From positions 147,631 through 211,630 of the forward strand of contig NW_014575400.1 of the NCBI RefSeq assembly GCF_000803265.1: a DNA stretch of 64,000 bases, read 5' to 3'. The notes below the pieces were generated by a model. That model was not told the DNA's origin, made no database searches, and worked only from the letters and a program-made list of their open reading frames with translations. Shown in pieces: positions 13,310 through 42,299 of the stretch (position 1 is the first letter of the stretch; the number at the start of each line of letters is the position of its first letter). Origin of the DNA: Ordospora colligata OC4. Lineage: Eukaryota > Microsporidia > Ordosporidae. Both the position numbers and the translations under genes were made by a program.

Positions 13310-15244
13310 ATGAGTTTTTTGATTTTTATGTTTATGCTGTTTGTGTATTCTGAGAGTCTTGGAATCAGATATGATGATATTATCAGTAAGTGGGTAACTT
13401 ATGAAAGGAGGAGGATGGCAGACAAGACATTTGATCCAGTGCAGGCGATGTTTGTGATTGAGGATGGAATGCCGTGTACTGCATTAGTAATGGGTAGGAA
13501 TGCTATTTCTAGTGCAGTTGAGATGTTTGAAGATGGATTTGAAGGGATACCCAGCGGGGGGAATATTGAGAATGCTTCTGAAGGAAGATACAGGGTCAAA
13601 GGATATGAAACGGAGATTGATGTGAAGGGAATGAATTATCTGTGCCTGAAGACAGGGATTGATGCTTTTAGGCACGTCAAGTTAGAGAGTGTGGACAAGG
13701 TTGGGATTGCATACAGGACATATTTTGGAGCGGAGCAGGCCATGGAGCTTGGAGAGAGTTTGGCTGATGTGGTGGATATGGAAGAGGTGTATGTGGTGCC
13801 TGAAGCTCTTTGTGGACTTGTATCCAAAGTTGGACACATAGATGGAGAAGCTGAATTTTTGTGTTTGGTGATATCTATGAGTGGAAGCAAGGGAATGCTT
13901 TCGTTGTATGATGTTGAGATAAGAGAGAGGAAAAGGAAATTTAAGAACCGAGCTCATGTTGAATGCCCGATGGTAAGTGACAGGACGATACAACGGATGA
14001 TTTATGAAGAGATAGAAGCTGAGCTTAGGAGGGATATACAAAGCAAGGAAGATGTGAGCGATGAGAAGAAGGATGTGACGTTTTACCCGCGAACTGGAGA
14101 AGGGCAATTGTATGATTTGAAGGTTGATATGAAACCTGTGTACAAGGAGGTCAGTAAAGGATTGAGGTACAAGGAGATAGTTGAAAACATTAAGATAATT
14201 GAAGGAGTACCGATAGTTGATGAGGAGGAGAATGTAAGGTATGTGGTTGAGGCGCCTGTGTTTAACACTGGGAACATACAGAAGATGATAATGAAAGCAG
14301 TTGAAGAAGATCGGAAGAAAATAGAAAATACGGTTGAGAAAGTTTATGCGATGATTGATGCAGAGAGAAAAGATGGAAAGCAGATTTCTGTGATAATGCG
14401 ATCTGAGTTTAGCGAGAATCCTGTTTTTGACGAAGTGTTCAAGATGTTTGGAAAGAGAGAGCATGTAAAAGCGGAAGATATTGAGCAGGGAGCGGCAAGG
14501 GTGTTAAGGAGCCAATGCGAGGTTGAGGATGAGAAGTATCTGCGTGTTTTGAGAAAAGAGAGTCAAGGAAAGAGATACTTGGATGAGGTGAAGCTACGCA
14601 AGGATGTAGATGCAATAAGAGCAGAAGTGGAGAACGATGGAATTGAGAAGATGTTTGGAGGAGCCGAGATTAATGAAGAGGATAAGTTTTTTATGAGGAT
14701 TGGCGAAATGAATAGCTGTGAGGAGCTGGAGAGGGTGAGGAGTAGATGGAATGAGCTGAAGAGAATGGAGAGTGAAAGGCAGAGGGAACTTGTAAGCAGG
14801 ATTAGTAATTTGGAGAGTTTGAGGAAGGCAATACAGGAAGGAAAGAAGAAGCAAAAGGAGGTGAGTGAGCCATGGAAGGAACAGATTAGAGGATATGTTG
14901 AGAAAGCAGATTTGGCGTATAAACAGATGAGTAAAGACATGAAGTCGAGGAGTGTAGATATTGAGGATGCAGAGCTTGAGCTAGTAGTCAAGGTGAAGAT
15001 GGCGACTGGTGAATATGACGAAAAGATCAGAAAGGAGAAAGAAGCCAAAGAAGCACAACAGAAGAGTGCTAAGGAAGTCAAAGAAGGGGATGTGAGGGAT
15101 AATATTGATGAAGAAAAGGGAACCACAAGTGGAGATGATGAAAGAAATAAAGATGAGCATGGAGTAGGAGAAAATAAGAGCGATGGAGGAAGTAATTGTA
15201 GTGGAAAGGAAGGAGTCTCGGATGAAGAAAAACAAGAGTTATAA
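13310..15244 (+). CDS. Highly diverged ER-lumenal Hsp70 (Lhs1/GRP170-like)
   Basis: A 644-aa protein with a signal peptide (MSFLIFMFMLFVYSESLG) and a C-terminal KQEL, an HDEL/KDEL-like ER retention signal. The body keeps only a faint Hsp70 plan. VGIAYRTYFGAEQAMELGESLA corresponds to the 'vP.yF...qR.al..Aa..AG' block. KQISVIMRSEFSENPVFDEVFKMFG followed by VKAEDIEQGAARVL corresponds to 'i..V.lvGGsSRiP.vq..l......N.dEavA.GAA'. The last 200 residues are charged, helical and Lys/Glu-rich. The glycine-rich phosphate loops of Hsp70 are not recognisable, so ATPase activity is doubtful. Probably a GRP170/Lhs1 nucleotide-exchange partner of BiP (inference). CCC precedes the ATG. Confidence 0.6.
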   Translation: MSFLIFMFMLFVYSESLGIRYDDIISKWVTYERRRMADKTFDPVQAMFVIEDGMPCTALVMGRNAISSAVEMFEDGFEGIPSGGNIENASEGRYRVKGYETEIDVKGMNYLCLKTGIDAFRHVKLESVDKVGIAYRTYFGAEQAMELGESLADVVDMEEVYVVPEALCGLVSKVGHIDGEAEFLCLVISMSGSKGMLSLYDVEIRERKRKFKNRAHVECPMVSDRTIQRMIYEEIEAELRRDIQSKEDVSDEKKDVTFYPRTGEGQLYDLKVDMKPVYKEVSKGLRYKEIVENIKIIEGVPIVDEEENVRYVVEAPVFNTGNIQKMIMKAVEEDRKKIENTVEKVYAMIDAERKDGKQISVIMRSEFSENPVFDEVFKMFGKREHVKAEDIEQGAARVLRSQCEVEDEKYLRVLRKESQGKRYLDEVKLRKDVDAIRAEVENDGIEKMFGGAEINEEDKFFMRIGEMNSCEELERVRSRWNELKRMESERQRELVSRISNLESLRKAIQEGKKKQKEVSEPWKEQIRGYVEKADLAYKQMSKDMKSRSVDIEDAELELVVKVKMATGEYDEKIRKEKEAKEAQQKSAKEVKEGDVRDNIDEEKGTTSGDDERNKDEHGVGENKSDGGSNCSGKEGVSDEEKQEL

Positions 15245-23993: not shown

Positions 23994-26900
23994 TCAATCA
24001 CTTCCCTCACTATCATCTCCACACTGCCTTTTGCCTTTCAACATCTTTGAAATCAACGGCTGTACAACAAACACCGCAATCGCAATAACCGCTATGGATA
24101 AAACAACCATCACAAACTCACTCATTCCGATCTTTACAAACTTATACTCAGGAAGCCACTCCATAGCAACATCCGGATACTTATAAACACCAACAAGCAA
24201 AAGAAAATTCACAGAAATCATTCCAATCGCAAACACCTTGAAAATCATATTACTTGCTGAGTCTTGACAATGAGGCTTATTGTTGTTCAGGTACATTCCA
24301 TTCAGAATATACATAAACACTGTTCCAAAAAAAACAAGCTCTCCAGATACAGTCTCAACACTCAGAAATGCACTGGGCTTCTCATATATTGACAGCAACA
24401 ACAATATAACACCCTCGACAGCAACAGTAATGCACAAAGGTATTGAGCTCGACTTCGTCGTAAGAAAAACATTCGGCCGTGTCGGAAATATCTTCTTGGA
24501 GGCCTTCGATCGCGTAAGCACATATGCAATAGGTACAGAAACAAACAAATCCCCATGCATCGTCTGCAAATCACTCAGGAACTTCCTTCTAATAATCAGA
24601 AATACCAACGCCATATATGCAACCACACATGATGAAATAACATACTTAAAAGTAGCAACCGACGTCACAAATGCAGACCGTCCCTCCCGGATAAGATCAA
24701 TCACAGATCCTATCTCAGAAGACATAAAATTTGCTGCAAGACTCGCCTCATTATGCGCAAGCGCAAGACCCACATCCGCACTACTAAGTGCTCCACTATC
24801 ATTCGCCCCATCTCCACAGAACATAACCACACGTCCTCTTGCTTGTAGATTCTCCACAAGAGCTTTCTTCTGTCCAGGGTTGAACCTTGCAAACACAGCC
24901 CCACGTTCTAGAATAAACTGGAAGTAATGAGTGTTTCTGAAAAAATCAAATTCCCTTCCTTCACAAGCAACTACAAAGTCCGTACTCGATCCCCGATCAT
25001 TCTCTCTATACAGGCTCAGCCTCACCTTGTCAAAAGTAAATTCTTCCTCATCTCCAACACACAGCCATTCCACATCAAAAATAGAATCTGCATTCTCCTC
25101 AATCACAGGAAATATGACTGGCATAAACTCTTCAATAATTCCACATTCCCTACCAACAGATATCGCAGTCAGAATATTATCTCCAGTACACATTAAATTT
25201 CTAATCTTTGCCTCATTCAGCTCGTCAATCGTCCTCCTTGAATCAGCTTTAAGCTTATTAGAAAACACCACAAGAGCAAGGAAATTTAGTTCAGATTCAT
25301 CCGTGCTTCTGTCTATACTTTCAGATACATCCTTATATGCCAATGAAATCACTCTATACCCACCCAATGAGTACTCTCTAACCTTCTCTTCATATCCATT
25401 CGGCACACTTTTCAGAACTGAGCGTATAGACTCAGGAGATCCTTTCGAAAAAATACTCTTCTTATTTGTATACTCCACTACCACACTCATCCTTCGTATA
25501 ACAGAGTCAAATTCATAACTCTTTACTATTGTCACATTAATCTCCTCATTAATCTCCTGTTCATGCGATCCTTCATCCCTTAAACTCATCTCATCAGAAG
25601 TCTCACGCTCCCATACTCTTTCAAGTCCAAGACTTGTCGGATACGCATCCTGAATCTCCTCGTCGCTCATTACGTGTGTTCCTTTTCTGCCTTTCTGATA
25701 ATACACTGTGCCATTAGTATCATTGTACTCCTTAAGAATCGGACCATATACCTTGCTGTGCCCACCAACAACTACACTTCGCAGGTTTTCATGCTGCACA
25801 AGCCTAGATGACGAAAAAATAAACATCTTTAGATCCAGAGAGTCACCAGAATACTTCCCGTCCAGCTCATAAACAAGATGGCACGTGCTCAGTCCAATCC
25901 TGGCCTTAATGTCCACCTTCTCAATCTCGCTCGTAGGCTTCTGTAAATCATCAATACACAGTATATCAAGTCCTTCACACGTCAACGTTCCTGTCTTGTC
26001 AAATACCACAGTATCAACCCTTCCAGCCAAGTTAATCCTATCAAGACTGCTGCAATGTATATTCCTCCTCAACAGCTTCTTGTAGCATAACTGTGTCCCA
26101 AGCCTAAGATATATCGGAAGTGCTGGATTGGCAAGTGTAAAAAACAAATCAATGCTGTATGCAACATTCATCCTATTGGAAAATCCCATCGCATCAAACA
26201 CAAAGGCCATGGTTGCAGTCAATACAATAGCAACGCATAAAATACCGAATATTACAAGCTCAGCCTCCTTAACAAATCTATTAACTACAGGCCTTGCATT
26301 TAACATATTCTTCAAAATCTGTCCACGTGCTGTATGGAACCCCGTTCGTAGAACAAGTCCAATCGCAAAGTTCTCAAATGCATCAATCGACCCCGTAATC
26401 CCAACCGTCCTAGGCTTGTTCTTATTCGTCAGATTCCTAACCCTGCATAAATTCCCTCCTCCCATGCATGCAGACATAGGCATGGTGTTAATACTCTTTA
26501 GAACGCCAGTCCCTGAATATATTATCGACTCTTGATCTGCATTCTTATATATCGGTACAGTCTCCCCTGTAAGAAGGCATTCGTTTGTTATTGCATCTCC
26601 TCGTATCACCAATGCATCACACAAAAACTCATCGCATGGCTCAATATATATCACATCCCCAGGATACACTTCCTGGCTGTCTACCTGCACAAATTGTCCT
26701 GTACGAAGTACTCGGACACTCTTTTTCTTTAAAAGTCGTCGCATGCTCATTGAATGACGGATGTCCTCCCAGTTCGTAAATACAAACGAATACATAACAA
26801 TAATGCCCATCGCCATTGCATACCTTGCATAATCAATCTCACTCCACACAAGCACACATGCAACATTGGACATAAAAGTAACACTCAATGTATTCTTCAA

Positions 26901-27485
26901 AAGAATGTCAATAATCCCAGGAATAGGCATATTCGTTATATTCTTCCCGTAAAACACATTCCTCAGTATATACTCCGCCATTTCCTTCTCTGGTGACTTT
27001 GAAACTTCTCCACTGTAAAACTCCTCAAAGCTCTTTTCAAGTGTCTTTTGCTCTGGTGGGACAATAAATCTCTTTGCAGACACATCATATATTAATCTGT
27101 AAAACTGTGACTCAATTACACGTGCTTTGCCTTCCTGTGAATATCTTTGAAGAGCACACACACCCATCGTCTCATACAATCTTACATCAATAAACTCTTC
27201 TTGCCCATTGTGATGTGTGACTATCACACAATCTGCATCTGAAATGTTACATCGAGAGCTGAGTATGACTTTCTTGGCACTCCGCACATACTTACAGATC
27301 ATGTACAGCATCCCAAATGTTGCTACACACAACACATTGTAGAGAAATACAGGCAAGCGTCTTTTGCGCCCTTCAACATTTACAAAAGGCCTTTCCTGTT
27401 TGATTGCTACGAACATTCCAAGGGCGATCAAGATCAACGGATTTTGCATTCTTATTGATCTGGAAAATAAGGAGATAACATGCAC
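23994..27485 (-). CDS. P5B-type cation/polyamine-transporting ATPase (YPK9/ATP13A2-like)
   Basis: An 1163-aa multi-pass P-type ATPase. The actuator region has PGDVIYIEPCDEF and TGETVPIYK. The fourth core helix carries NPALPIYLRLGTQLC, related to the P5B signature PPALP. The phosphorylation motif DKTGTLT is at about residue 495. The hinge GDGANDSGALSSADVGLAL is at about 890, with further C-terminal helices. P5B pumps (yeast Ypk9, human ATP13A2) export polyamines and perhaps cations from vacuole/lysosome lumens. The P5A class (Spf1) has PPELP, so P5B is favoured, although the first Pro is Asn here. Complete, slightly short. A 273-bp spacer upstream holds nothing evident. Confidence 0.87.
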   Translation of the reverse strand: MHVISLFSRSIRMQNPLILIALGMFVAIKQERPFVNVEGRKRRLPVFLYNVLCVATFGMLYMICKYVRSAKKVILSSRCNISDADCVIVTHHNGQEEFIDVRLYETMGVCALQRYSQEGKARVIESQFYRLIYDVSAKRFIVPPEQKTLEKSFEEFYSGEVSKSPEKEMAEYILRNVFYGKNITNMPIPGIIDILLKNTLSVTFMSNVACVLVWSEIDYARYAMAMGIIVMYSFVFTNWEDIRHSMSMRRLLKKKSVRVLRTGQFVQVDSQEVYPGDVIYIEPCDEFLCDALVIRGDAITNECLLTGETVPIYKNADQESIIYSGTGVLKSINTMPMSACMGGGNLCRVRNLTNKNKPRTVGITGSIDAFENFAIGLVLRTGFHTARGQILKNMLNARPVVNRFVKEAELVIFGILCVAIVLTATMAFVFDAMGFSNRMNVAYSIDLFFTLANPALPIYLRLGTQLCYKKLLRRNIHCSSLDRINLAGRVDTVVFDKTGTLTCEGLDILCIDDLQKPTSEIEKVDIKARIGLSTCHLVYELDGKYSGDSLDLKMFIFSSSRLVQHENLRSVVVGGHSKVYGPILKEYNDTNGTVYYQKGRKGTHVMSDEEIQDAYPTSLGLERVWERETSDEMSLRDEGSHEQEINEEINVTIVKSYEFDSVIRRMSVVVEYTNKKSIFSKGSPESIRSVLKSVPNGYEEKVREYSLGGYRVISLAYKDVSESIDRSTDESELNFLALVVFSNKLKADSRRTIDELNEAKIRNLMCTGDNILTAISVGRECGIIEEFMPVIFPVIEENADSIFDVEWLCVGDEEEFTFDKVRLSLYRENDRGSSTDFVVACEGREFDFFRNTHYFQFILERGAVFARFNPGQKKALVENLQARGRVVMFCGDGANDSGALSSADVGLALAHNEASLAANFMSSEIGSVIDLIREGRSAFVTSVATFKYVISSCVVAYMALVFLIIRRKFLSDLQTMHGDLFVSVPIAYVLTRSKASKKIFPTRPNVFLTTKSSSIPLCITVAVEGVILLLLSIYEKPSAFLSVETVSGELVFFGTVFMYILNGMYLNNNKPHCQDSASNMIFKVFAIGMISVNFLLLVGVYKYPDVAMEWLPEYKFVKIGMSEFVMVVLSIAVIAIAVFVVQPLISKMLKGKRQCGDDSEGSD

Positions 27486-28925: not shown

Positions 28926-31574
28926 ATGAAGCCAATGTTACTGATGATGCTGTTTGCATTCTCAATCAACAAAAGGGTGTTCTATATCAACCTGAAGGAT
29001 GTCAAGTCTGGAAGTGACTTCCTGAGTCAATTGTTTGAAAAGTCAGGCATCCTCAATACCATATCAAGTACAAAAAGCAGTCTTGGTGAGTCACCAGATG
29101 CTGCTGTACCTACAGGACAGGATGATCAAGCAGAACAACAACCACTTGATCAAAAACCTGCAGATCAAGCTGATGAACCAAAATCAGGCAAAGCCAAACA
29201 AGATGAGCAACAAGCATCAGAAAAGACACTCTCAAACAAAAAAGATACATCAGCAGAGCAGAGCAAACAAAAGACTGATCAAGAAACACAAGCTACTGAT
29301 GAACAAAAGGTTAAAGAAAAAGAAGCACAGAAAGTAAAAGATAAAGAAGAAGAAGAAGCTGAAGCTGAAAAGAAAAAACAAGAAAAGCAAGCCAAGGACG
29401 AACAGAAAGCAAAAGACAAGGAAGAACAGAAAGTAAAAGATAAACAAAAACAAGAAAAGACCGAACAAGAAAAGCAAGCCAAGGACGAACAGAAAGCTAA
29501 AGAAAAAGAGGAGCAGAAAAAAAAAGATAAGGAAGAAGCAGAAAAAAAGAAGCAAGAAAAAAAGGACAAAGATGAACAGAAAGCTAAAGAAAAAGAGCAA
29601 CAGAAATCCAAGAAACAAACACAAGAAAGTAATAAAAGCGAAGCAGACAAAAACAATCAATCTGAACAAGCAGATAACAAAAAACAAGATAAGCAAAGTG
29701 TAACACGTGACATTAAAAAAGATGCTAGTAAAGAGCCAAGTACTGTTACATCTGCAGATTCAAAGAACAAAACACAAGCAAGTAATAAAGCTCCACAAAC
29801 CAAAAAGAACGATGAAAGCATAAATTCAGTCCTTGAAAAATCAATTTCAGATGGTTCATCAATTACTACATCAAGTATGAACACATCAAATAAGATTCAC
29901 ACATTAGTTACTAGCATTGGAAGCATTGAGTCTATACCATCGTCAATTATGTCAGAATCAGTGCCATCAACAGTATCTGCACCTTTGATCTCATCAATGT
30001 CACTTTCTTCTGCATCTATGAATTCTATGACCTCATCAATATCTTCAGCAATTATGTCTTCAATGGCATCAGCTTCTATTATGTCACACAGCATTTCTGC
30101 TGCTCCTCAATCAACGATATCTTCTCTGATGAAAAAGATGCCTGAAATAGAAAAAGTTAAGGAGCTCAGCCCGTCAGACATTAATAAAATCTTGGAAAGT
30201 TGTGAAGACTGCGAAAGAGTCGATCAGGTGTTGGTATACAGAAATGGTGATTCTTTCACGGACTACTCCGGAAATATAAAATTTGAAGAACGAGATGGAA
30301 AGCTAGTCGATGCATCAGGATTGTTCATTGGCAAAGACTGTGGATGCCCAAAAGAAGAGATTCCAGAAATGGGCAAACTATCTGAGACAGGATTGTATCA
30401 GGATAAACAGGTTAGCAGCCAGAGCTGCCAGAAACAAGCAAATGCCATTGAAAAGATATACTCTTCAGTGGATGTCATCCAGAGTCAAAGCATGGCAATG
30501 TCTATCCATTCAGAGTCCACTTACTCAAGTGTGATGCCAATATCGAATACAACAGGAAGTGCATTATCTGGGTCTGTTTCATCTTCCGTTAGTATTCCAA
30601 GCAGTGTGTCCAGTAATACATCATCAAGTAGTTCAGGTTCAAGCGGTACATCTCCTTCAAGTATTTCACAAACTACAAGTGTTATGCAGTCTTCACCAGC
30701 AACAAGTGCATCCTCCACATCTAATGCTACACAAACATCTAACATTGCACAGGCAAGTACGAACAATCAACAATCAACACAACCTGTCGCAAATACCAAT
30801 TCAGTAATTTCAAACAGTCCACAGGCGCCATCACCTAGTGTTGCAATGCTGCCTGAAACAGTTCAGCAAGCTCCAGTGGCAACTATTTTATCACAACCCA
30901 GTAATATAAATGCACAAGCGATTGAATTGCAGGATACAAACAAAGGCTCGCATACACAAAATAAGCCATGCAGTGTATCACCAAGCATATCCATTAAGGC
31001 CATAAAGGTTAAGTACAATGACAGTTGCAAGGATGAATCTGATGTCGATGATTGTAAGAAGACGATTGAACCTGAAAGAATAAATGAAGTAACAATAACA
31101 GCACCACCAGAGACAATAACAAAAACCGAAAAGATTGAGCTTCCTCCAACTACAATTATAAAGGAACTGACGATCGTCAAGCCACCATGCACCATTGAAA
31201 AAGAAGTGATAATCACACAAGAGATTACACAAGAACCAGAAATAATCGTAGAGCAGAAGACTGTAATTAAGCCAACAACAATTGTTGAATACAAGACAAT
31301 CGAAATCACAACCACGGCAACAGAGATCATGCATGAGACAACAACAGTTACACAAACAAAGGAAGCAGAAGTTCCTATATCGACTGTTTACGTGGAGGCA
31401 TTAAGGAAGACAAAGATACCTGATGAGGGATATGTGAAAACGATCAACACCACTATAATACTTGAAGATCCTGAGGAGATGCCTGAAGAGATAGAATGTG
31501 AGGAGGAATGCGAATGCCAGGGAGATAAATGCATGAATCCATGTGGCAAGATACGGTGTGTGTCTTCTGAATAG
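28926..31574 (+). CDS. Large secreted low-complexity protein A (shared-module family)
   Basis: An 882-aa protein, not a known family. A signal peptide lies at about 1-15 (MLLMMLFAFS). Residues 60-270 are Lys/Glu/Gln repeats (KQAKDEQKAKDKEEQK and variants). Residues 290-400 are Ser-rich. A folded-looking module at about 425-495 has LVYRNG, DY, F.ER.GKLVDASGLF and GKLSETGLYQ. Residues 518-675 are Ser/Thr-rich. Residues 715-850 hold repeated Thr-Thr-Ile/Val motifs (PPTTIIKELTIVKPP, HETTTVTQTKE). The end is cysteine-rich with CxCx4Cx3C. It is first of three tandem genes sharing the module. Spore wall, polar tube or host-facing secretion is inferred from architecture only. Confidence 0.75.
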   Translation: MKPMLLMMLFAFSINKRVFYINLKDVKSGSDFLSQLFEKSGILNTISSTKSSLGESPDAAVPTGQDDQAEQQPLDQKPADQADEPKSGKAKQDEQQASEKTLSNKKDTSAEQSKQKTDQETQATDEQKVKEKEAQKVKDKEEEEAEAEKKKQEKQAKDEQKAKDKEEQKVKDKQKQEKTEQEKQAKDEQKAKEKEEQKKKDKEEAEKKKQEKKDKDEQKAKEKEQQKSKKQTQESNKSEADKNNQSEQADNKKQDKQSVTRDIKKDASKEPSTVTSADSKNKTQASNKAPQTKKNDESINSVLEKSISDGSSITTSSMNTSNKIHTLVTSIGSIESIPSSIMSESVPSTVSAPLISSMSLSSASMNSMTSSISSAIMSSMASASIMSHSISAAPQSTISSLMKKMPEIEKVKELSPSDINKILESCEDCERVDQVLVYRNGDSFTDYSGNIKFEERDGKLVDASGLFIGKDCGCPKEEIPEMGKLSETGLYQDKQVSSQSCQKQANAIEKIYSSVDVIQSQSMAMSIHSESTYSSVMPISNTTGSALSGSVSSSVSIPSSVSSNTSSSSSGSSGTSPSSISQTTSVMQSSPATSASSTSNATQTSNIAQASTNNQQSTQPVANTNSVISNSPQAPSPSVAMLPETVQQAPVATILSQPSNINAQAIELQDTNKGSHTQNKPCSVSPSISIKAIKVKYNDSCKDESDVDDCKKTIEPERINEVTITAPPETITKTEKIELPPTTIIKELTIVKPPCTIEKEVIITQEITQEPEIIVEQKTVIKPTTIVEYKTIEITTTATEIMHETTTVTQTKEAEVPISTVYVEALRKTKIPDEGYVKTINTTIILEDPEEMPEEIECEEECECQGDKCMNPCGKIRCVSSE

Positions 31575-31600
31575 ATACTGGATCTGAGTTGAATTAAATT

Positions 31601-31678
31601 GATATAATATCTGAGTTCTTGAAAAGTCTAATGATTTATGATATAATACCTGAGTTTTTTAAAAAGTCAATGGTTTAT
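31601..31678 (+). repeat. Imperfect 39-nt tandem duplication
   Basis: Units 31601-31639 and 31640-31678 both start GATATAATA and contain CTGAGTT and AAGTC. They differ at about seven positions. They lie 26 bp after the stop of protein A in the 243-bp spacer before gene B, which holds nothing else evident. Confidence 0.8.
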
Positions 31679-31817
31679 GCATGGTTAGAATCAAAGAATT
31701 TCCATCTAGGAAGTAAATCACATAACTGAAAGATTTGACGGATATCAACAGTAAAACATGTTTTGATGTGATAACTTGAAACAAATGAGATATAAGCAAT
31801 GTTTTTGCGAAACATAA

Positions 31818-33455
31818 ATGAAAACAGCATTGGTGTTGGTGATGTTCAGATACTTTGTACGAGCAGATGTGTTCAAGGAGGTTAATTTGGAGCGTCTTTT
31901 GAGCAGTGATTCTAAGGACACACAGTCTGACGTAATAGGTAGCTCATCTTTAAGCGAAGGCTCGAAGATGCCATCGATGCTCATGGGACAAGAGAAAGAC
32001 GCTAGCGTGGAAAAGCCAAGCGATGTTCCGATTATTATTATATCTTCTGAAGAGAGCATGAAAGGCAAGACAGGGCAAGAGCGTGAGCAGCAGGTTATTT
32101 CAATTGTGAAAGGTGTTCTATCTGATCAGAACATCAAGGCGGATCTTCAGTCTCTATCTGATGGGAATGCAAATGAGATTAATGATTCTGGAAGATTCAG
32201 AGAGAGTGATGAGAGTGCTAGAATTCCTGGAGTGGTGTACACGCCATCAGTAGCAAATATTGCAGGGGGAAGTAGCAATGAATCATATTGGACTAGCATA
32301 ATTGACGATGACGGAAAGGTCAAGAAGGTTAAAGTGAATGTCAAGGTTATGACGATTGTGCAGGATATTGAAGAGCCAAAAGGGCAAGGCAAGGATGATA
32401 AGAATCTAAATGGTGTGAATGGATCAGAGGAGAAGCAAGAAGCGACTCAGGGGAATGCAGATGTTTCTACCAAGGTATCTACAATTGGAGTGAATGATAG
32501 GAAGGAAAAAGATAAGGAGAAAGAGAAAGAGAAAGAGAAAGAAGAAAAGGAAAAGGAAAAGAAAGAGAAAGAAAAGGAAAAGAAAGAAAAAGAAGAAAAG
32601 GAAAAGAAAGAAAAGGAAAAGAAAGAGAAAGAAAAGGAAAAGAAAGAGAAAGAAAAGGAAAAGAAAGAGAAAGAGAAAGAAGAAAAGGAAAAGAAAGAAG
32701 AAAAGGAAAAGAAAGAAGAAAAAGAGAAAAAAGAAAAGGAAAAGGAAAAGGAAAAGGAAAAGAAAGAAAAGAAGGAGAAAGAAGGTAATGATAAAGACAA
32801 GAAAAACAAGGAAGACAGTGATAAAGATAAAGATAAAAAAGAGAAGCTAAAACAGAAGGAAGATAAGAGAAAAAATGAGAAGGACAAAAAAGATGATGAT
32901 GAATCTTCAGATGCATCCTCTATAAAAAGTATCTTTGGATTTTCAGATAAAGGCAAAGACACAGAGTCTAAGAAAGAGGATATAAACGAAAATGATAGTA
33001 GCAATAAGGAAGAAAAAGAAGGCAAGAATAGGAAAGAAAAGAATGGTGGCCGAGACGACAAGGATAGGAAGGATAAAGAGGAAAAGAAAGAAAACAAAGA
33101 TAAGAAGGAAGATAGGAAGGAAAAGAAAGACCAAGAAAACAAAGATAAGAAGGAAGATAAGAAGGAAGATAAGAAGGAAGATAAGAAGGAAGATAAGAAG
33201 GAAAAGGATGAAAATAACAGCGATAAGAATGATGATAAGAATAACAAGCGAGAAGGAAAGAAGGAAGATAAGGAAGAAAGAAGTCCTGAAATGAACGATT
33301 TGTTTTATGTTCTGAAAAACATGCCTGAGAGAACTAATCCCAACAAGCCTGGTGGAAAATTGTTTGTCGAAGGAAACTTTGCAGCTGTCAAGGAAGAAAA
33401 GCTGAAAGATAAGAAGTTTACCTTCTCTGGATATATCCAGGCAGCAAGCACATAA
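31818..33455 (+). CDS. Secreted Lys/Glu-repeat protein B (shared-module family)
   Basis: A 545-aa protein. A short signal peptide (MKTALVLVMFRYFVRA) is followed by a Ser/Asp/Glu-rich region. Residues about 232-324 are an almost pure Lys/Glu tract encoded by homopurine DNA, residues 440-462 include five DKKE units, and the C-terminal module covers about residues 490-545. The module reads MNDLFYVLKNMPE, GGKLFVEGNFAAVKEEKLK and KFTFSGYIQ, aligning with the last half of the module in neighbours A and C. No cysteines are visible in the C-terminal region. The repeat tract probably varies in length between isolates. It is the second of the tandem trio; function unknown. Confidence 0.72.
   Translation: MKTALVLVMFRYFVRADVFKEVNLERLLSSDSKDTQSDVIGSSSLSEGSKMPSMLMGQEKDASVEKPSDVPIIIISSEESMKGKTGQEREQQVISIVKGVLSDQNIKADLQSLSDGNANEINDSGRFRESDESARIPGVVYTPSVANIAGGSSNESYWTSIIDDDGKVKKVKVNVKVMTIVQDIEEPKGQGKDDKNLNGVNGSEEKQEATQGNADVSTKVSTIGVNDRKEKDKEKEKEKEKEEKEKEKKEKEKEKKEKEEKEKKEKEKKEKEKEKKEKEKEKKEKEKEEKEKKEEKEKKEEKEKKEKEKEKEKEKKEKKEKEGNDKDKKNKEDSDKDKDKKEKLKQKEDKRKNEKDKKDDDESSDASSIKSIFGFSDKGKDTESKKEDINENDSSNKEEKEGKNRKEKNGGRDDKDRKDKEEKKENKDKKEDRKEKKDQENKDKKEDKKEDKKEDKKEDKKEKDENNSDKNDDKNNKREGKKEDKEERSPEMNDLFYVLKNMPERTNPNKPGGKLFVEGNFAAVKEEKLKDKKFTFSGYIQAAST
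32514..32785 (+). repeat. 272-nt uninterrupted homopurine tract
   Basis: Every base on the plus strand from 32514 to 32785 is A or G, made of GAAAAG, GAGAAA and GAAGAA units. It encodes a Lys/Glu polymer inside protein B. Such tracts can form triplex structures and are prone to slippage and assembly error. Confidence 0.95.
33144..33203 (+). repeat. Five 12-nt tandem repeats
   Basis: Five perfect copies of GATAAGAAGGAA in frame, encoding DKKE five times within protein B. Confidence 0.95.
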
Positions 33456-33565
33456 TCAAATAAATAATTAGGCAAACTCTATTATAAAGTATTGCAGATG
33501 ATGTATTGATTATGAAACATTTGTTTTGAACATTGTTTTAGCAGAATTGATTGGTGTTTGCAGGC

Positions 33566-34543
33566 ATGAGAGGATTGCATGTGTCAGGGATCATTTCGAT
33601 TATGTGGATTATCATAGCACATGCCAGTGCAGTTCATGAATTCAACAGAGATGATGAAAGCACGGTTGAAATAGTCTTGTTGAATGATGAATCAATTAAC
33701 ACACAGCAAAGACACTCACAAGCAAATACGATTCGCAATCCAAAGAAAAACACAGACAAAGCATCCAAAGACAAAGCATTGAGAGATCTTCTAACAATCC
33801 TTCTTGGACGCATCCTTACAGAAAAAGCAAGTGTGACAGGAAGCAAGTCAGCTGATGAACCGCATCTCAACTCTATACAAACCAATAAAGATACACAAAT
33901 CATTGCAAATAACAAAGATATCACACAACATGATAAAGAAGTATCATCAAATGACGCTAAGACAAGAATAGAGATGCTTAAGAGCATCGAGCACATTCCC
34001 ATGAACTACAATTTACTCTGTACATTTTTTCAGAATATCGGCTTCATCCGAGACAAGCTCAAGAATAAACCTGGAATAGGAGTTGTTCGTAATGTCATTG
34101 TATATGACAATGGTAATCAACTGATCGATTACTGGAGTAGATTAGTATTCAAAGAGCAGGCAGGCAGGCTTATTGATGAAACTGGGTATTTTGAGGGAAT
34201 CAAAGTTAGTAAGTTTGAAGATGTACTAAAGGATGGTAAGATGACAGTGTCTGGACTGATTCAAAAACGTGATATTTCTAGTATGGAAGCTTTAGATACA
34301 CTCAATACTATAAAGCTGCTGCTTAATGAGGTTGCAAATGAAAAAAAGATTCCACTTCACAACCTGATCAATGAAAGCTGCACATTATCAACAGTAGAAG
34401 AAGTGGTGTTCTATGCAATGCATCCTTCAATAAATAATGAAGAAAGTGCATATGTGTGCATATGTTCAGACTCATTCTGTAAAGAGCCATGCAAAGAAGT
34501 CATTCTAATGAAGAAAAAGGACATAGTAAACAGAAATGGCTAG
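33566..34543 (+). CDS. Secreted protein C (shared-module family)
   Basis: A 325-aa protein with a signal peptide (GIISIMWIIIAHASA). A charged linker follows, and a folded region from about residue 150. The module at about 171-233 reads VRNVIVYDNGNQLIDYW, AGRLIDETGYFEGIK and DGKMTVSGLIQ and aligns along its length with protein A; the second half matches B. Past the module come a helical segment and CICSDSFCKEPC, a CxCx4Cx3C motif like the end of A. The open frame begins at a TTG at 33551; the first ATG is at 33566 and starts the signal peptide. It is the shortest family member, with least low-complexity sequence. Confidence 0.75.
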   Translation: MRGLHVSGIISIMWIIIAHASAVHEFNRDDESTVEIVLLNDESINTQQRHSQANTIRNPKKNTDKASKDKALRDLLTILLGRILTEKASVTGSKSADEPHLNSIQTNKDTQIIANNKDITQHDKEVSSNDAKTRIEMLKSIEHIPMNYNLLCTFFQNIGFIRDKLKNKPGIGVVRNVIVYDNGNQLIDYWSRLVFKEQAGRLIDETGYFEGIKVSKFEDVLKDGKMTVSGLIQKRDISSMEALDTLNTIKLLLNEVANEKKIPLHNLINESCTLSTVEEVVFYAMHPSINNEESAYVCICSDSFCKEPCKEVILMKKKDIVNRNG

Positions 34544-37908: not shown

Positions 37909-40900
37909 CTAGCCAACAGATATCGATGCCACAGTGCTTTCACCTTCATTTTGTGTTTGATCTGCACTGATAGAAGACATATTTATTCCGTTTACAAACG
38001 GCGTTAGCTTTTCCACTATCTCATCTATGACAATCTCATCAGAAATCAGCAAACTGTCATTTGGAATCTTCTTTTGTTTTATATCCAATACAACATCGTC
38101 CATGCTTTTTCCATCTAAGCTTTTTGCATCAATACTTTCCAAGCATACCGATTCCGGTTGTTTTACATAAGACTCAATTCTTGAGTATGCGACTTTTGGT
38201 ATCTCATTATACACCGTACTGATGCTTGCATCTTTACTAATACTCTCTTTTGACTCAATCACTGTAACCATTCTAGTTCTCATTCTTTTCGATTTACTTT
38301 CTTTTTCAGTTGTATCTTCATCGCTTGTTCCTATCACAGATCTAGATATAACAGGTAATACAACAGAAACAATCTCATCATTATGACTACGATCGGCATT
38401 ACGATGCATTTTGAATTCTTTTAGCTTCTTTCCAACCACTGCTTCAACCTTCTCCTCAAACCCATCTAATTCCCTTTCAAGCCTTCGTACCTGATCTTCA
38501 ACAACTGAACTCACCACACTAATATGCATATCCTTGTCCAACTCTTTGGCAACCGTACTGATAACAGTCTTAGTTACCACCTCATGCTCCGTAAGCGTCT
38601 CCTTCAATCCCTTTAACACATCAACCACACTTTCTATCATAACTCTATCTTCATCATTCTTAGAAATATCTCTAGCAATCTTCTTCTTGCCATTTTTCTT
38701 GCCGTATCGCAGTATCTCAGGTTCATCAGCATAAACTGATTTTAGATTGTATTTATTCTTCATGGCAGATGCATGATGCTCATTCTCTTTTGGCAGTTTC
38801 TGTCTTTTAGTATCAAATTCATGCGTAGATAATCTCTCAATCGATAGCACACTCATTATTGATTTTATAGAGTCTTTCTCAGCTTCTTTATCTTCATTCT
38901 CACTAACACTATCTATATCCTTACTACTCGATATTCCATTATACATACCTATATCATTCGCTCGGTCATCATGCAATCCAGGCACTTTCGCTCCATACTT
39001 CTTAATATCATTCAAGCCTTCCATATGCTTTAGATAACGTGGTAAATAAACACTAGATTCTATATGCTCTTCATCCATGGTATCTTTGTCATGTACTCGT
39101 ATCATCTCAAATTCATTCTGTTCATTCTTCATATTCTTGTTTCTTTCCATCGTTAGTATCATGTCAATTAGTTTCTGTTCTCTCTCTTCATTCATTGAAA
39201 TCCTCTTCATAAGCTCTTCAACCTTCTTTTCATACTTGCTCATTATGATAGAATGCTCTTCATCTTCTTTAGTCTGTGAAGCATGAGGTATATTCAGAAC
39301 AGTAGCCACAGAAGGCAGTGCTATTGATTGGCTCTGTGATAAGATGGAATCATGAACATTCTTTGTCTTTGTAACTGTCTCCACTACTGTGGTTGTTAAT
39401 TTCTTCGTAGCCACATTCTTTCCATTCAATATGCTCTCTTTTGTAGATGGTAATGCCTTGTTGATCTTCATAAATTCAGAAACTCCCTTTAACAACTCTT
39501 TAAATGCATCTTCATACTCCATGGGCATACGGTCCTTATGCATAGATTCCAAATATCCCTTATTAGAAGGTTCAGGTACGCTTTTGTAGACTGTTGTTGT
39601 GTGTTCTTTGCTAATCGTGAGCGTGGTTGTGTGAGGAACTGTATATAATGCACTTTCTGGTGATTGATGATGCAGAAGTTCAGCTATTGATGGCTTATCA
39701 GGTACTATGGTTGTAACAATCTTCTTGTTGGCATTGTGTGTCTCCGAGTCGAGCAGACTCTTGATTTGTTCAAGCAAATCAAACTCCATCAGTTTTTGTG
39801 TACTTGGCTTATACTTTTTATTTTTAAAGCCATTCTTTGTCTTATTTTCAAGAGCAGCTGCTGAGAAAGCACTTGATTCAGATTCAGCACGATCATCTGT
39901 TTCTATTTTGCTATCCATGCCATCTCTATCAACATACATTGTCTTAAGAATTGTTGTAGTGAGATCACGCATGCCTCGAGACACTCTTGGATGCCTTGTA
40001 ATTGTTCTGGTTGTTATTATTGTTTGTGTTTTCATCTTCTTTGATGCCATGTCTTCTGCTTGCTCAATCAACCGTGCCTTGGTTGTTGTTGTTGTGGTTG
40101 TTGTTCTCAATGTAATTGTTGACACAGATACTCCAGTGTCTTGATTAAGAAGCATCCTTGGATCATCTTTTTGTGTATATCTTTCAGGATATATATTATG
40201 GAACACATCTGAGTCCCTGATAAATACAGGAATCACGTTATTTCTTTCTATTATAACAGGTTCATTAAGGTTTGTGAGGGAATGAGAAGGCATCTCTTCT
40301 GTAGAGGTATCAGGCACTGAACGTTTGTTATCGATGTTCTGAATGACTTTAGGAAGCTCTATTACAGAAGATTTCCTTGCACACATGCCACCTAGATTTG
40401 AATTCTCAGTGATGCTATTGTACAGAGTTTTTAATTCGTCGCTCATAGACATATATTGCCCATTTGCACGGATTTTTGCTGCCCAGTCATACAAGTCACA
40501 AGCTCTGTATGATGTGCCATTATACGAAGCAATGTCGCCTTTGTAGACAATATTTTCAGAAGTTTTTGTGGGTAGAGCATCTGTTAGAAACGTAGCCATC
40601 GCTTGTGCAGAACCGTTTCCACCATCAGCATTTGGAGTATATCCGCTACCATATATGTTTTTGCTGATTTTTTTCTCGACAAACTTGACAAATGGCTTTT
40701 CATCTGCATGAATAGTTTTCGTAATAACAGTGCCTGATGGACTTTGAATTTGCATAATCCTAAGAGCATTGTCCGAAGCAGCAATGCCTGACTTTGAACA
40801 TGCATCCTTGCATTTCAGATCATCTTCAATGCATTTACATGATAAAGTTCTGTTAAGTGGCGAAGTGCCAGGCACAACCATGCCTTGGGTGGCAATACAA

Positions 40901-40938
40901 GTAGCCATAAGTAATTCGATAATCAAAACGGCATTCAT
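37909..40938 (-). CDS. Large secreted Thr-repeat protein D
   Basis: A 1009-aa protein, not a known family. A signal peptide (MNAVLIIELLMATCIATQG) is followed by the cysteine motif SCKCIEDDLKCKDAC (CxCx6Cx3C). The rest is hydrophilic and mostly disordered, with many short Thr/Val repeats (TITLRTTTTTTTTK, HTTTLTISKEHTTTVYK, KKLTTTVVETVTKTK) and Lys/Glu coiled-coil stretches at about 590-660 and 790-860. The repeats and the CxC motif recall protein A on the other side of ThrRS and TEL2. The open frame begins 25 codons earlier, but only the Met at 40938 starts a signal peptide. Probably spore wall or polar-tube associated (inference). Confidence 0.72.
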   Translation of the reverse strand: MNAVLIIELLMATCIATQGMVVPGTSPLNRTLSCKCIEDDLKCKDACSKSGIAASDNALRIMQIQSPSGTVITKTIHADEKPFVKFVEKKISKNIYGSGYTPNADGGNGSAQAMATFLTDALPTKTSENIVYKGDIASYNGTSYRACDLYDWAAKIRANGQYMSMSDELKTLYNSITENSNLGGMCARKSSVIELPKVIQNIDNKRSVPDTSTEEMPSHSLTNLNEPVIIERNNVIPVFIRDSDVFHNIYPERYTQKDDPRMLLNQDTGVSVSTITLRTTTTTTTTKARLIEQAEDMASKKMKTQTIITTRTITRHPRVSRGMRDLTTTILKTMYVDRDGMDSKIETDDRAESESSAFSAAALENKTKNGFKNKKYKPSTQKLMEFDLLEQIKSLLDSETHNANKKIVTTIVPDKPSIAELLHHQSPESALYTVPHTTTLTISKEHTTTVYKSVPEPSNKGYLESMHKDRMPMEYEDAFKELLKGVSEFMKINKALPSTKESILNGKNVATKKLTTTVVETVTKTKNVHDSILSQSQSIALPSVATVLNIPHASQTKEDEEHSIIMSKYEKKVEELMKRISMNEEREQKLIDMILTMERNKNMKNEQNEFEMIRVHDKDTMDEEHIESSVYLPRYLKHMEGLNDIKKYGAKVPGLHDDRANDIGMYNGISSSKDIDSVSENEDKEAEKDSIKSIMSVLSIERLSTHEFDTKRQKLPKENEHHASAMKNKYNLKSVYADEPEILRYGKKNGKKKIARDISKNDEDRVMIESVVDVLKGLKETLTEHEVVTKTVISTVAKELDKDMHISVVSSVVEDQVRRLERELDGFEEKVEAVVGKKLKEFKMHRNADRSHNDEIVSVVLPVISRSVIGTSDEDTTEKESKSKRMRTRMVTVIESKESISKDASISTVYNEIPKVAYSRIESYVKQPESVCLESIDAKSLDGKSMDDVVLDIKQKKIPNDSLLISDEIVIDEIVEKLTPFVNGINMSSISADQTQNEGESTVASISVG

Positions 40939-41075: not shown

Positions 41076-42299
41076 ATGGTAAGATGTTGTTTGGTTGTTT
41101 TAGTCCTCGGATATGCATTCTCAAGTATTGTGGCGGAGCATGAACACAATAAGGGTGTTATTGAAAAGCCATATCCCCAGGTAGCATATCATCCGAATGG
41201 AGCTAATGAAAAGGTTGGAGTGAAAGGAACGCATGTAGAAGCAGATGGCTTATCTCTTAGAAGACACACCGATGAGGGTGGGCTTGTGGCATTTCTTGAG
41301 CCAAATCCACATGAAGAATGGAGTTTTTCATATACATTTACAAACGCAGCACTAAGGTTTCCACATATTGGAGGTGTTTATCTATGGTATACATCTGAGA
41401 TTCCAGACCAAGGCGAGTACAAGGGTGGAAACGACAAGTTTGATGGCATAATGGCGGGGCTTGAATTTAGAGGTGCACAACCAGAGATAGTGATGGCATT
41501 CAATAATGGCGAAGAAAGCCTGAAAGGATCTGAGGATATGAATCTACACAGAGATGTAATAAATCCAGCAAGGCTTAGAGGAGTAAATGATATAACAGTG
41601 AAGGTGATATCCACAAAAAAGAACTTCAAGGTGGAATTGTATGACGGAGATAGGCTACTTTACGACAGCTTCAGATATCATGGAAATGGCAACTCAATAA
41701 AGATAGGCTCTGGAAAGTATTTCAACATCACATCATTTTATGACCGAGCACCTTCAAATAGTGTGTACAAGCTACGAAATGCAGAGCTCTTTGAAAGGAT
41801 AGAAACCGATGAATATACGATCCATGCGATTCATGCACCGTATGTAAATGAAGGTCCACGATCACCAGACAGTGTTATGCATGAAGAAGAGGAGATAAGA
41901 CATCTTGTATCCAAGACCGAATATCTGCATAACTATCTTCAGCTGATTATTGGAGACATAAACGACACATCATTTGACAAGATATTGCATACTCTTCATG
42001 AGCAGCAAAAGCAGGTTATGAAAAAGATGGATGAAATTACAGCATCATCAGGTAAATCAGGCACAGTGGACACAAAACTGATGTCATTATCTGAGAATAT
42101 GAACAGCATTGACATTCGAATCCAGAAGATTCAGAAAGCATTTGCGGATCTTGATCATATTGTAAACAAGTTAAGTGACAACCACAACAAGAGTTCAAAC
42201 TTTCTGGTTTATGTGATTCTTGGAATAGCAATGGCAGGATTTGTATTTGCAGCGGTCAAGGAGTACAATGCACTGAGAATCAGGCAGAAGGCTATTTGA
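41076..42299 (+). CDS. L-type lectin-like cargo receptor (ERGIC-53/Emp47 family)
   Basis: A 407-aa type I membrane protein. The signal peptide (CCLVVLVLGYAFSSIVA) precedes an L-type lectin domain at about residues 30-245, with HIGGVYLWYTSEIP, NDKFDGIMAGLEF and VKVISTKKNFKVELYDGDRLL. A coiled-coil stalk covers about 270-370. There is one transmembrane helix near the end (NFLVYVILGIAMAGFVFAAV) and a short basic tail (KEYNALRIRQKAI). These proteins carry glycoproteins from ER to Golgi. The tail lacks a canonical KKxx or FF export signal. It starts 137 bp from and divergent to protein D. Complete. Confidence 0.85.
   Translation: MVRCCLVVLVLGYAFSSIVAEHEHNKGVIEKPYPQVAYHPNGANEKVGVKGTHVEADGLSLRRHTDEGGLVAFLEPNPHEEWSFSYTFTNAALRFPHIGGVYLWYTSEIPDQGEYKGGNDKFDGIMAGLEFRGAQPEIVMAFNNGEESLKGSEDMNLHRDVINPARLRGVNDITVKVISTKKNFKVELYDGDRLLYDSFRYHGNGNSIKIGSGKYFNITSFYDRAPSNSVYKLRNAELFERIETDEYTIHAIHAPYVNEGPRSPDSVMHEEEEIRHLVSKTEYLHNYLQLIIGDINDTSFDKILHTLHEQQKQVMKKMDEITASSGKSGTVDTKLMSLSENMNSIDIRIQKIQKAFADLDHIVNKLSDNHNKSSNFLVYVILGIAMAGFVFAAVKEYNALRIRQKAI

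What the first reader, a model, noticed from the sequence alone, without database searches (positions are those of the whole stretch)
28926..34543. Three tandem secreted proteins share an undescribed small module inside unrelated low-complexity sequence
Proteins A (28926-31574), B (31818-33455) and C (33566-34543) lie head to tail, each with a signal peptide. A and C align over about 60 residues (A: LVYRNG...DY...GKLVDASGLF...GKLSETGLYQ; C: VIVYDNG...DY...GRLIDETGYF...GKMTVSGLIQ), and B keeps the second half (GGKLFVEGNF...KKFTFSGYIQ). The repeats around the module differ completely (Lys/Glu/Gln, Lys/Glu, or almost none). This looks like a lineage-specific secreted family made by tandem duplication with rapid change outside one conserved domain. 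Location in spore wall, polar tube or host interface is inference.
Basis: partly seen in the sequence, partly recalled or inferred. Interest (0 to 1): 0.85.

Follow-up and report, generated by a model that had tools for sequence, protein, structure and literature searches.

The report
Microsporidian secreted tandem module family
Two (probably three) neighbouring genes of a tiny spore-forming parasite encode secreted-looking proteins built around one small, undescribed folded domain joined to very different floppy stretches, most likely parts of the parasite's spore coat or invasion tube.

Summary
The A-C relationship is real. The module of A (residues ~405-520) and of C (~141-256) match at E 1e-11 to 1e-14, find each other in the 2.28 Mb genome, and give the same predicted secondary structure, confident for A (core pLDDT 89-95) and fairly confident for C (71-92). 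No Pfam family or solved fold matched significantly. C is not Ordospora-specific: it has orthologues in four named Encephalitozoon species and a more distant metagenome protein. A and B were found only in Ordospora pajunii (plus one unnamed protein for B), with consecutive locus tags in the same order. Between the two genomes A's module is 97% and B's tail 96% identical; A's Ser-rich stretch 64%, B's second Lys/Glu stretch 49%. Best reading: extracellular structural proteins (spore wall or polar tube) with a conserved contact module on fast-changing disordered arms. Location, function and the date of the duplication are not established.

The parts
28926..31574 (+). Protein A, 882 aa, hydrophobic N-terminus
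   Evidence: ORF; open frame 885 aa in the genome
29106..29825 (+). A Lys/Glu/Gln-rich arm (residues 61-300)
   Evidence: composition K26 E16 Q15 percent
30138..30485 (+). A module (residues 405-520)
   Evidence: homologous to C; model with core pLDDT 89-95; 112 of 116 identical in O. pajunii
30486..30965 (+). A Ser-rich arm (residues 521-680)
   Evidence: 29 percent Ser; 102 of 160 identical in O. pajunii
30966..31490 (+). A Thr/Ile/Glu/Pro-rich stretch (residues 681-855), weak 12-13 residue period
31509..31544 (+). A C-terminal motif CECQGDKCMNPC (residues 862-873)
   Evidence: tail 27 of 27 identical in O. pajunii
31818..33455 (+). Protein B, 545 aa, no cysteine
   Evidence: ORF; no Cys; open frame exactly 545 aa
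32523..32891 (+). B Lys/Glu arm (residues 236-358)
   Evidence: composition of residues 231-358 K51 E36 percent
33351..33440 (+). B probable half-module (residues 512-541)
   Evidence: weak: 2-6 of 5000 and 0 of 3000 shuffles; not seen by hhalign
33566..34543 (+). Protein C, 325 aa, hydrophobic N-terminus
   Evidence: ORF; orthologues
33986..34375 (+). C folded region (residues 141-270) holding the module
   Evidence: pLDDT 71-92 over residues 151-270; alignment
34457..34492 (+). C C-terminal motif CICSDSFCKEPC (residues 298-309)
   Evidence: Cys and Pro invariant in 10 of 10 aligned C proteins

Best explanation
A and C are tandem paralogues, with B a probable truncated or eroded third member: secreted microsporidian proteins carrying one small alpha+beta module. 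Shown: the shared module, its common predicted secondary structure, and the shared C-terminal cysteine motif of A and C. Inferred: after export they become part of an extracellular assembly, most likely the spore wall or polar tube; the module makes a specific protein contact, the cysteine tail forms disulfide cross-links, and the charged or Ser/Thr-rich arms act as fast-evolving spacers, possibly glycosylated.
For: A-C homology. Strands and helices coincide after a constant offset of 146 (145 after one inserted residue in A): A strands 28-36, 48-52, 55-58, 63-67, helix 72-78, strands 79-81, 87-89; C strands 174-181, 194-198, 201-204, 209-214, helix 217-223, strands 224-226, 232-234. The cysteine motif is in A and C and in none of the other 47 of 49 window ORFs; 0 of 40000 shuffles of A and 0 of 100000 of C hold it. 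O. pajunii locus tags HK407_08g13280 (A), 13290 (B), 13300 (C) give the same order. Hydrophobic N-termini and no later membrane-like stretch. Conserved module and tails against faster arms in A and B. Known polar tube proteins share the style: adjacent genes ptp1-ptp2, Lys- or Ser-rich sequence, conserved cysteines (PMC10468886, section 6 read).
Against: No localisation, expression or proteomic evidence was found: twelve locus tags at or near the C orthologues gave no paper. No fold match suggests a function. B lacks cysteines and its link is weak. The two models share nine aligned sequences, so their agreement is not independent. C's own module changes faster than A's (50 of 65 against 112 of 116 identical), so the constraint is not uniform. 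A's signal peptide and Lys/Glu/Gln arm have no counterpart in the O. pajunii entry, which begins at A residue 355.
Confidence: 0.5

Rival explanations
1. They are secreted host-interface proteins: released into the vacuole or host cell during growth, where the module binds a host protein, and the arms vary under host pressure.
For: Hydrophobic starts and no later membrane span; fast-changing arms in A and B; no print record of wall or tube location.
Against: A's module and cysteine tail are nearly frozen (112 of 116 and 27 of 27 identical), which is not what a fast arms race would give; C is kept across Encephalitozoon species and Ordospora, whose hosts differ (hosts recalled).
Confidence: 0.22
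2. They are secretory-pathway (ER or Golgi-like) resident proteins or chaperone-like factors that use the module to bind client proteins during wall and tube assembly.
For: Signal-peptide-like starts without a membrane anchor fit any lumenal protein.
Against: No retention signal such as KDEL or HDEL at the C-termini read; long Ser/Thr-rich and Lys/Glu arms are more usual in surface proteins (recalled).
Confidence: 0.13
3. B is not a member: its tail resembles C's module end by chance, and the true family is A plus C only.
For: hhalign finds nothing at the tail; no A-B match at the module; full-length B scores 1.5 bits against the C profile, below three unrelated window ORFs at 2.1-3.4 bits; no cysteine. 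The tail was also picked because it looked alike, so the shuffle counts flatter it.
Against: B-tail profile: 10 of the 11 distinct C-family entries rank directly behind B's own relatives in a set of 63; 0 of 3000 shuffles of C and 0 of 2000 of P0002 as good, at the corresponding place; B lies between A and C; A and B align over residues 1-26 by hhalign, E 2.3e-5, though that is the hydrophobic start.
Confidence: 0.4

Closest known systems
C orthologues of Encephalitozoon (Eint_071530, EHEL_071540, EROM_071480 and others)
   Same: Orthologues of C, 39-43% identical over 97-100% of it (EROM entry 54% over 55%), with the same module and cysteine tail
   Different: Uncharacterised; names given by sources contradict each other (spore wall protein, geranyltransferase, guanylyltransferase, hypothetical). 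No A or B counterpart was found in Encephalitozoon within the length limits
Polar tube proteins PTP1 and PTP2
   Same: Adjacent genes, cysteines, compositionally biased sequence (PMC10468886 section 6)
   Different: PTP1 and PTP2 have 06 locus tags (Eint_060150, Eint_060140); C orthologues have 07 tags. PTP sequences were not aligned here
Polar tube protein PTP4
   Same: Six cysteines, about 278 aa, 07 locus tags; C has six cysteines
   Different: Different locus (EHEL_071080 against EHEL_071540); sequences not compared here
Antonospora locustae SWP2 and relatives
   Same: Secreted, four cysteines conserved across microsporidia (PMC5697631, passages)
   Different: Its cysteines are spread out (117, 146, 173 and a fourth), not a compact C-x-C-x4-C-x2-P-C tail; sequences not compared here

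Membership tests
PTP1-PTP4 polar tube proteins | Orthology, judged by Encephalitozoon locus tag | tested here: not met
   For C only: its orthologues are Eint_071530, EHEL_071540, EROM_071480; PTP1-PTP4 are Eint_060150, 060140, 111330, 071050 and counterparts. A and B had no Encephalitozoon orthologue to compare
PTP1-PTP4 polar tube proteins | Adjacent ptp1-ptp2-like genes for secreted proteins with conserved cysteines | tested here: inconclusive
   Adjacent; A has 15 Cys, C 6, B none; secretion judged by hydropathy only
PTP1-PTP4 polar tube proteins | Presence in the polar tube | not testable with these tools
   Needs proteomics or antibodies
Microsporidian spore wall proteins (features as listed in PMC5697631) | Signal peptide | tested here: inconclusive
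   Hydropathy rank 4 (C), 9 (A), 14 (B) of 49; no SignalP
Microsporidian spore wall proteins (features as listed in PMC5697631) | Four conserved cysteines | tested here: inconclusive
   A and C have a conserved four-cysteine tail with spacing unlike that reported for AlocSWP2; B has none
Microsporidian spore wall proteins (features as listed in PMC5697631) | Localisation to the wall | not testable with these tools
   Twelve locus tags gave no paper
Any Pfam-A family | Match above the curated cut-off | tested here: not met
   A and B: no family at E<=1; C: Gastrin at 16.9 bits, cut-off 22.2. Ten C orthologues: best E 0.013, the same hit
Any fold in the PDB | Significant structural match to the module | tested here: inconclusive
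A/C module family as defined here | Module | tested here: met
   A and C; B weak
A/C module family as defined here | C-terminal C-x-C-x4-C-x2-P-C | tested here: met
   A and C, 10 of 10 aligned C proteins, P0012. Not met by B, which has no cysteine

The most novel reading that the evidence does not exclude
The module is an undescribed extracellular domain with a new fold that, paired with a C-x-C-x4-C-x2-P-C tail, defines a family of microsporidian wall or tube building blocks; tandem copies swap their disordered arms while one contact surface stays fixed.
Probability: 0.3. Interest if true: 0.55.

Novelty: new member of a known kind. Interest (0 to 1): 0.36.

Why it matters
Microsporidian wall and tube proteins are hard to recognise across species because their sequences drift. 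A small conserved module plus a cysteine signature gives a handle for finding relatives that ordinary searches miss. The Encephalitozoon orthologues of C are unannotated or carry contradictory names, so a shared architecture would correct that annotation and name a concrete protein to localise.

Tried and rejected
B's N-terminal part as a match to C's N-terminal part (an eye catch of mine): rejected, 1490 of 5000 shuffles as good; A's N-terminal part likewise, 378 of 5000. A-B similarity by hhalign lies only over residues 1-26, the hydrophobic start (E 2.3e-5, probability 76); I do not count it as proof of homology.

Relatives elsewhere: the C family gave none confirmed in the prokaryote genome collection (94 stretches matched a pattern) or in viral contigs (58 stretches); A and B were not tried there. 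PDB sequences: best E 0.57. NCBIfam: only below-cut-off hits, the strongest (TolA, 36 bits, cut-off 59.45) in A's low-complexity arm.

Duplication timing: the tree puts A outside all C proteins, but holding A with Ordospora C costs only 2.69 log units, AU p 0.268. One extra residue (Y-x-N-G after the first strand) is shared by A and Ordospora C and absent from the other C proteins aligned; it fits a duplication in Ordospora but is a single character.

Limits: could see only proteins of about 485-1543 aa (A) and 300-953 aa (B) that share short words with the query region, so a shorter A homologue in Encephalitozoon could be missed. EhSSP1 (EHEL_111090, PMC6703431 passages) was considered and dropped as a different locus.
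Full report
What is there. The window lies in a 2.28 Mb, 13-contig genome. The nearest named relative of C is from Ordospora pajunii, 70% identical; by size and divergence the genome is probably Ordospora colligata (inference; no call names it). The three ORFs are at the stated coordinates and strand. The stop-to-stop frames are 885, 545 and 330 aa against ORFs of 882, 545 and 325 aa, so there is no long hidden upstream extension.

A and C are homologous. BLASTP gives 32% over 84 residues, E 9.3e-12. A profile of ten C-family modules scores A at 46.5 bits (best domain), E 1e-14, in a set of 63 entries (49 window ORFs and 14 fetched proteins, C being in it twice); the best unrelated entry reaches 3.4 bits. 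hhalign aligns 92 columns at E 2e-10, probability 96.9. In the whole genome C finds only itself and A (2.2e-8), A's module only itself and C (7.1e-9), and the more distant P0011 the same two places. The tool says such counts are lower bounds.

The predicted fold. C was predicted from ten sequences: mean pLDDT 55 because of long low-confidence stretches, but block means 71-92 over residues 151-270. A's module, predicted from eleven sequences, has mean pLDDT 83.5 and block means 89-95 over residues 11-110 of the piece. Strands and helices coincide after a constant offset: helix, short strands (five in A; in C the second is only two residues), short helix, two short strands, long helix. The two alignments share nine sequences, so agreement is partly expected. 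Searches of solved structures (both models) and of viral models (A module only) found nothing significant, and no Pfam family applies.

A second shared feature. A holds CECQGDKCMNPC at residues 862-873 and C holds CICSDSFCKEPC at 298-309, both within the last 28 residues. The pattern C-x-C-x4-C-x2-P-C occurs in 2 of the window's 49 non-overlapping ORFs, A and C; 0 of 40000 shuffles of A and 0 of 100000 of C contain it (without the proline: 0 of 40000 and 1 of 100000). Its cysteines and proline are invariant in 10 of 10 aligned C proteins, and A's last 27 residues are identical in O. pajunii. A and C thus share module plus tail; in A about 340 residues lie between the two.

B is a weak member. 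Its last 30-55 residues score better against C's profile than all but 2 (30 residues) or 6 (55 residues) of 5000 shuffles. A profile of B's tail ranks 10 of the 11 distinct C-family entries directly behind B's own relatives; 0 of 3000 shuffles of C and 5 of 3000 of P0003 were as good, 0 of 2000 for P0002, 19-29 of 2000 for P0004, P0007, P0008 and P0009, but 646 of 2000 for P0011 and 421 of 2000 for A's module region. Against it: hhalign of the B and C families finds nothing there, A's profile does not pick the tail, a genome search with the tail finds only itself, full-length B scores no better against C's profile than unrelated ORFs, and B has no cysteine. The tail was also picked because it looked alike. 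I put B's membership at about 0.6.

Distribution. C's relatives: O. pajunii, E. intestinalis, E. hellem (three entries), E. cuniculi, E. romaleae, two unnamed proteins of source lgn and a 437-aa protein from a JGI contig. The C family gave no confirmed relative in prokaryote genomes or viral contigs. A was found only in O. pajunii and B in O. pajunii and one unnamed JGI protein, under length limits that could hide relatives. O. pajunii's locus tags 08g13280 (A), 13290 (B) and 13300 (C) show the same order.

Rates. Between the two Ordospora genomes A's module is 112 of 116 identical, its Ser-rich arm 102 of 160, its Thr/Ile-rich stretch 148 of 175, its cysteine tail 27 of 27. B (against P0014, the JGI relative): residues 67-190 111 of 124, first Lys/Glu arm 81 of 110 aligned (13 gaps), second arm 34 of 70 aligned (32 gaps), tail 55 of 57. 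C: module core 50 of 65, linker 67 of 110 aligned (5 gaps), cysteine tail 24 of 28. Faster change outside the module holds for A and B; C's own module changes faster than A's, so the constraint is not uniform. A's first 354 residues have no counterpart in the O. pajunii entry.

Timing. A lies on a long branch outside all C proteins, but holding A with Ordospora C is not rejected (AU p 0.268).

How it most likely works. Shown: two genes, probably three, for proteins with hydrophobic starts, no later membrane-like stretch, a common module and, in A and C, a cysteine tail. Inferred: export, incorporation in the spore wall or polar tube, module as contact surface, tail as disulfide cross-link, arms as spacers. 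The analogy with polar tube proteins (adjacent ptp1-ptp2, Lys-rich PTP2, conserved cysteines) comes from PMC10468886, section 6 read; it is an analogy only, since the C orthologues have other locus tags than PTP1-PTP4.

Literature. Twelve locus tags at or near the C orthologues (EHEL_071530, 071540, 071550, Eint_071530 and ECU07_1510 to 1580) gave no paper in the held library. The E. cuniculi tag of the orthologue is not known to me, and EROM_071480 and KMI_08g13820 were not searched, so this is not proof of absence. Two wider topic searches brought one listing (PMC3879972, listing only) and none. Other papers were seen as passages only: PMC6703431, PMC5697631, PMC9997559, PMC10158259.

Noticed in passing
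37909-40938 (-): A 1009-aa ORF with a hydrophobic start, CKCIEDDLKCKDAC near its N-terminus (similar to, but spaced differently from, the A/C tail) and Thr-rich runs; no Pfam match above cut-off and no second match in the genome at E<=1.
   Followed up: partly
41076-42299 (+): Possible legume-like lectin protein (Lectin_leg-like, E 0.0025, 17.7 bits, below its cut-off of 24) with a hydrophobic start, perhaps a secretory-pathway cargo receptor.
   Followed up: partly
23994-27449 (-): P5-type ATPase.
   Followed up: no
29367-29628 and 32518-32774: The Lys/Glu-rich arms of A and B both show an 87-bp (29-residue) tandem period by TRF; may be a coincidence of similar composition.
   Followed up: no
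30966-31490: Thr/Ile/Pro-rich stretch in A with a weak 12-13 residue periodicity, 148 of 175 identical in O. pajunii; no second copy in the genome.
   Followed up: partly
13310-15244 (+): 644-aa ORF with a strongly hydrophobic start and no Pfam match at E<=0.01, another candidate secreted protein.
   Followed up: no
P0003-P0006, P0008 (C orthologues): Public names for the same orthologue contradict each other: spore wall protein, geranyltransferase, guanylyltransferase, hypothetical.
   Followed up: no
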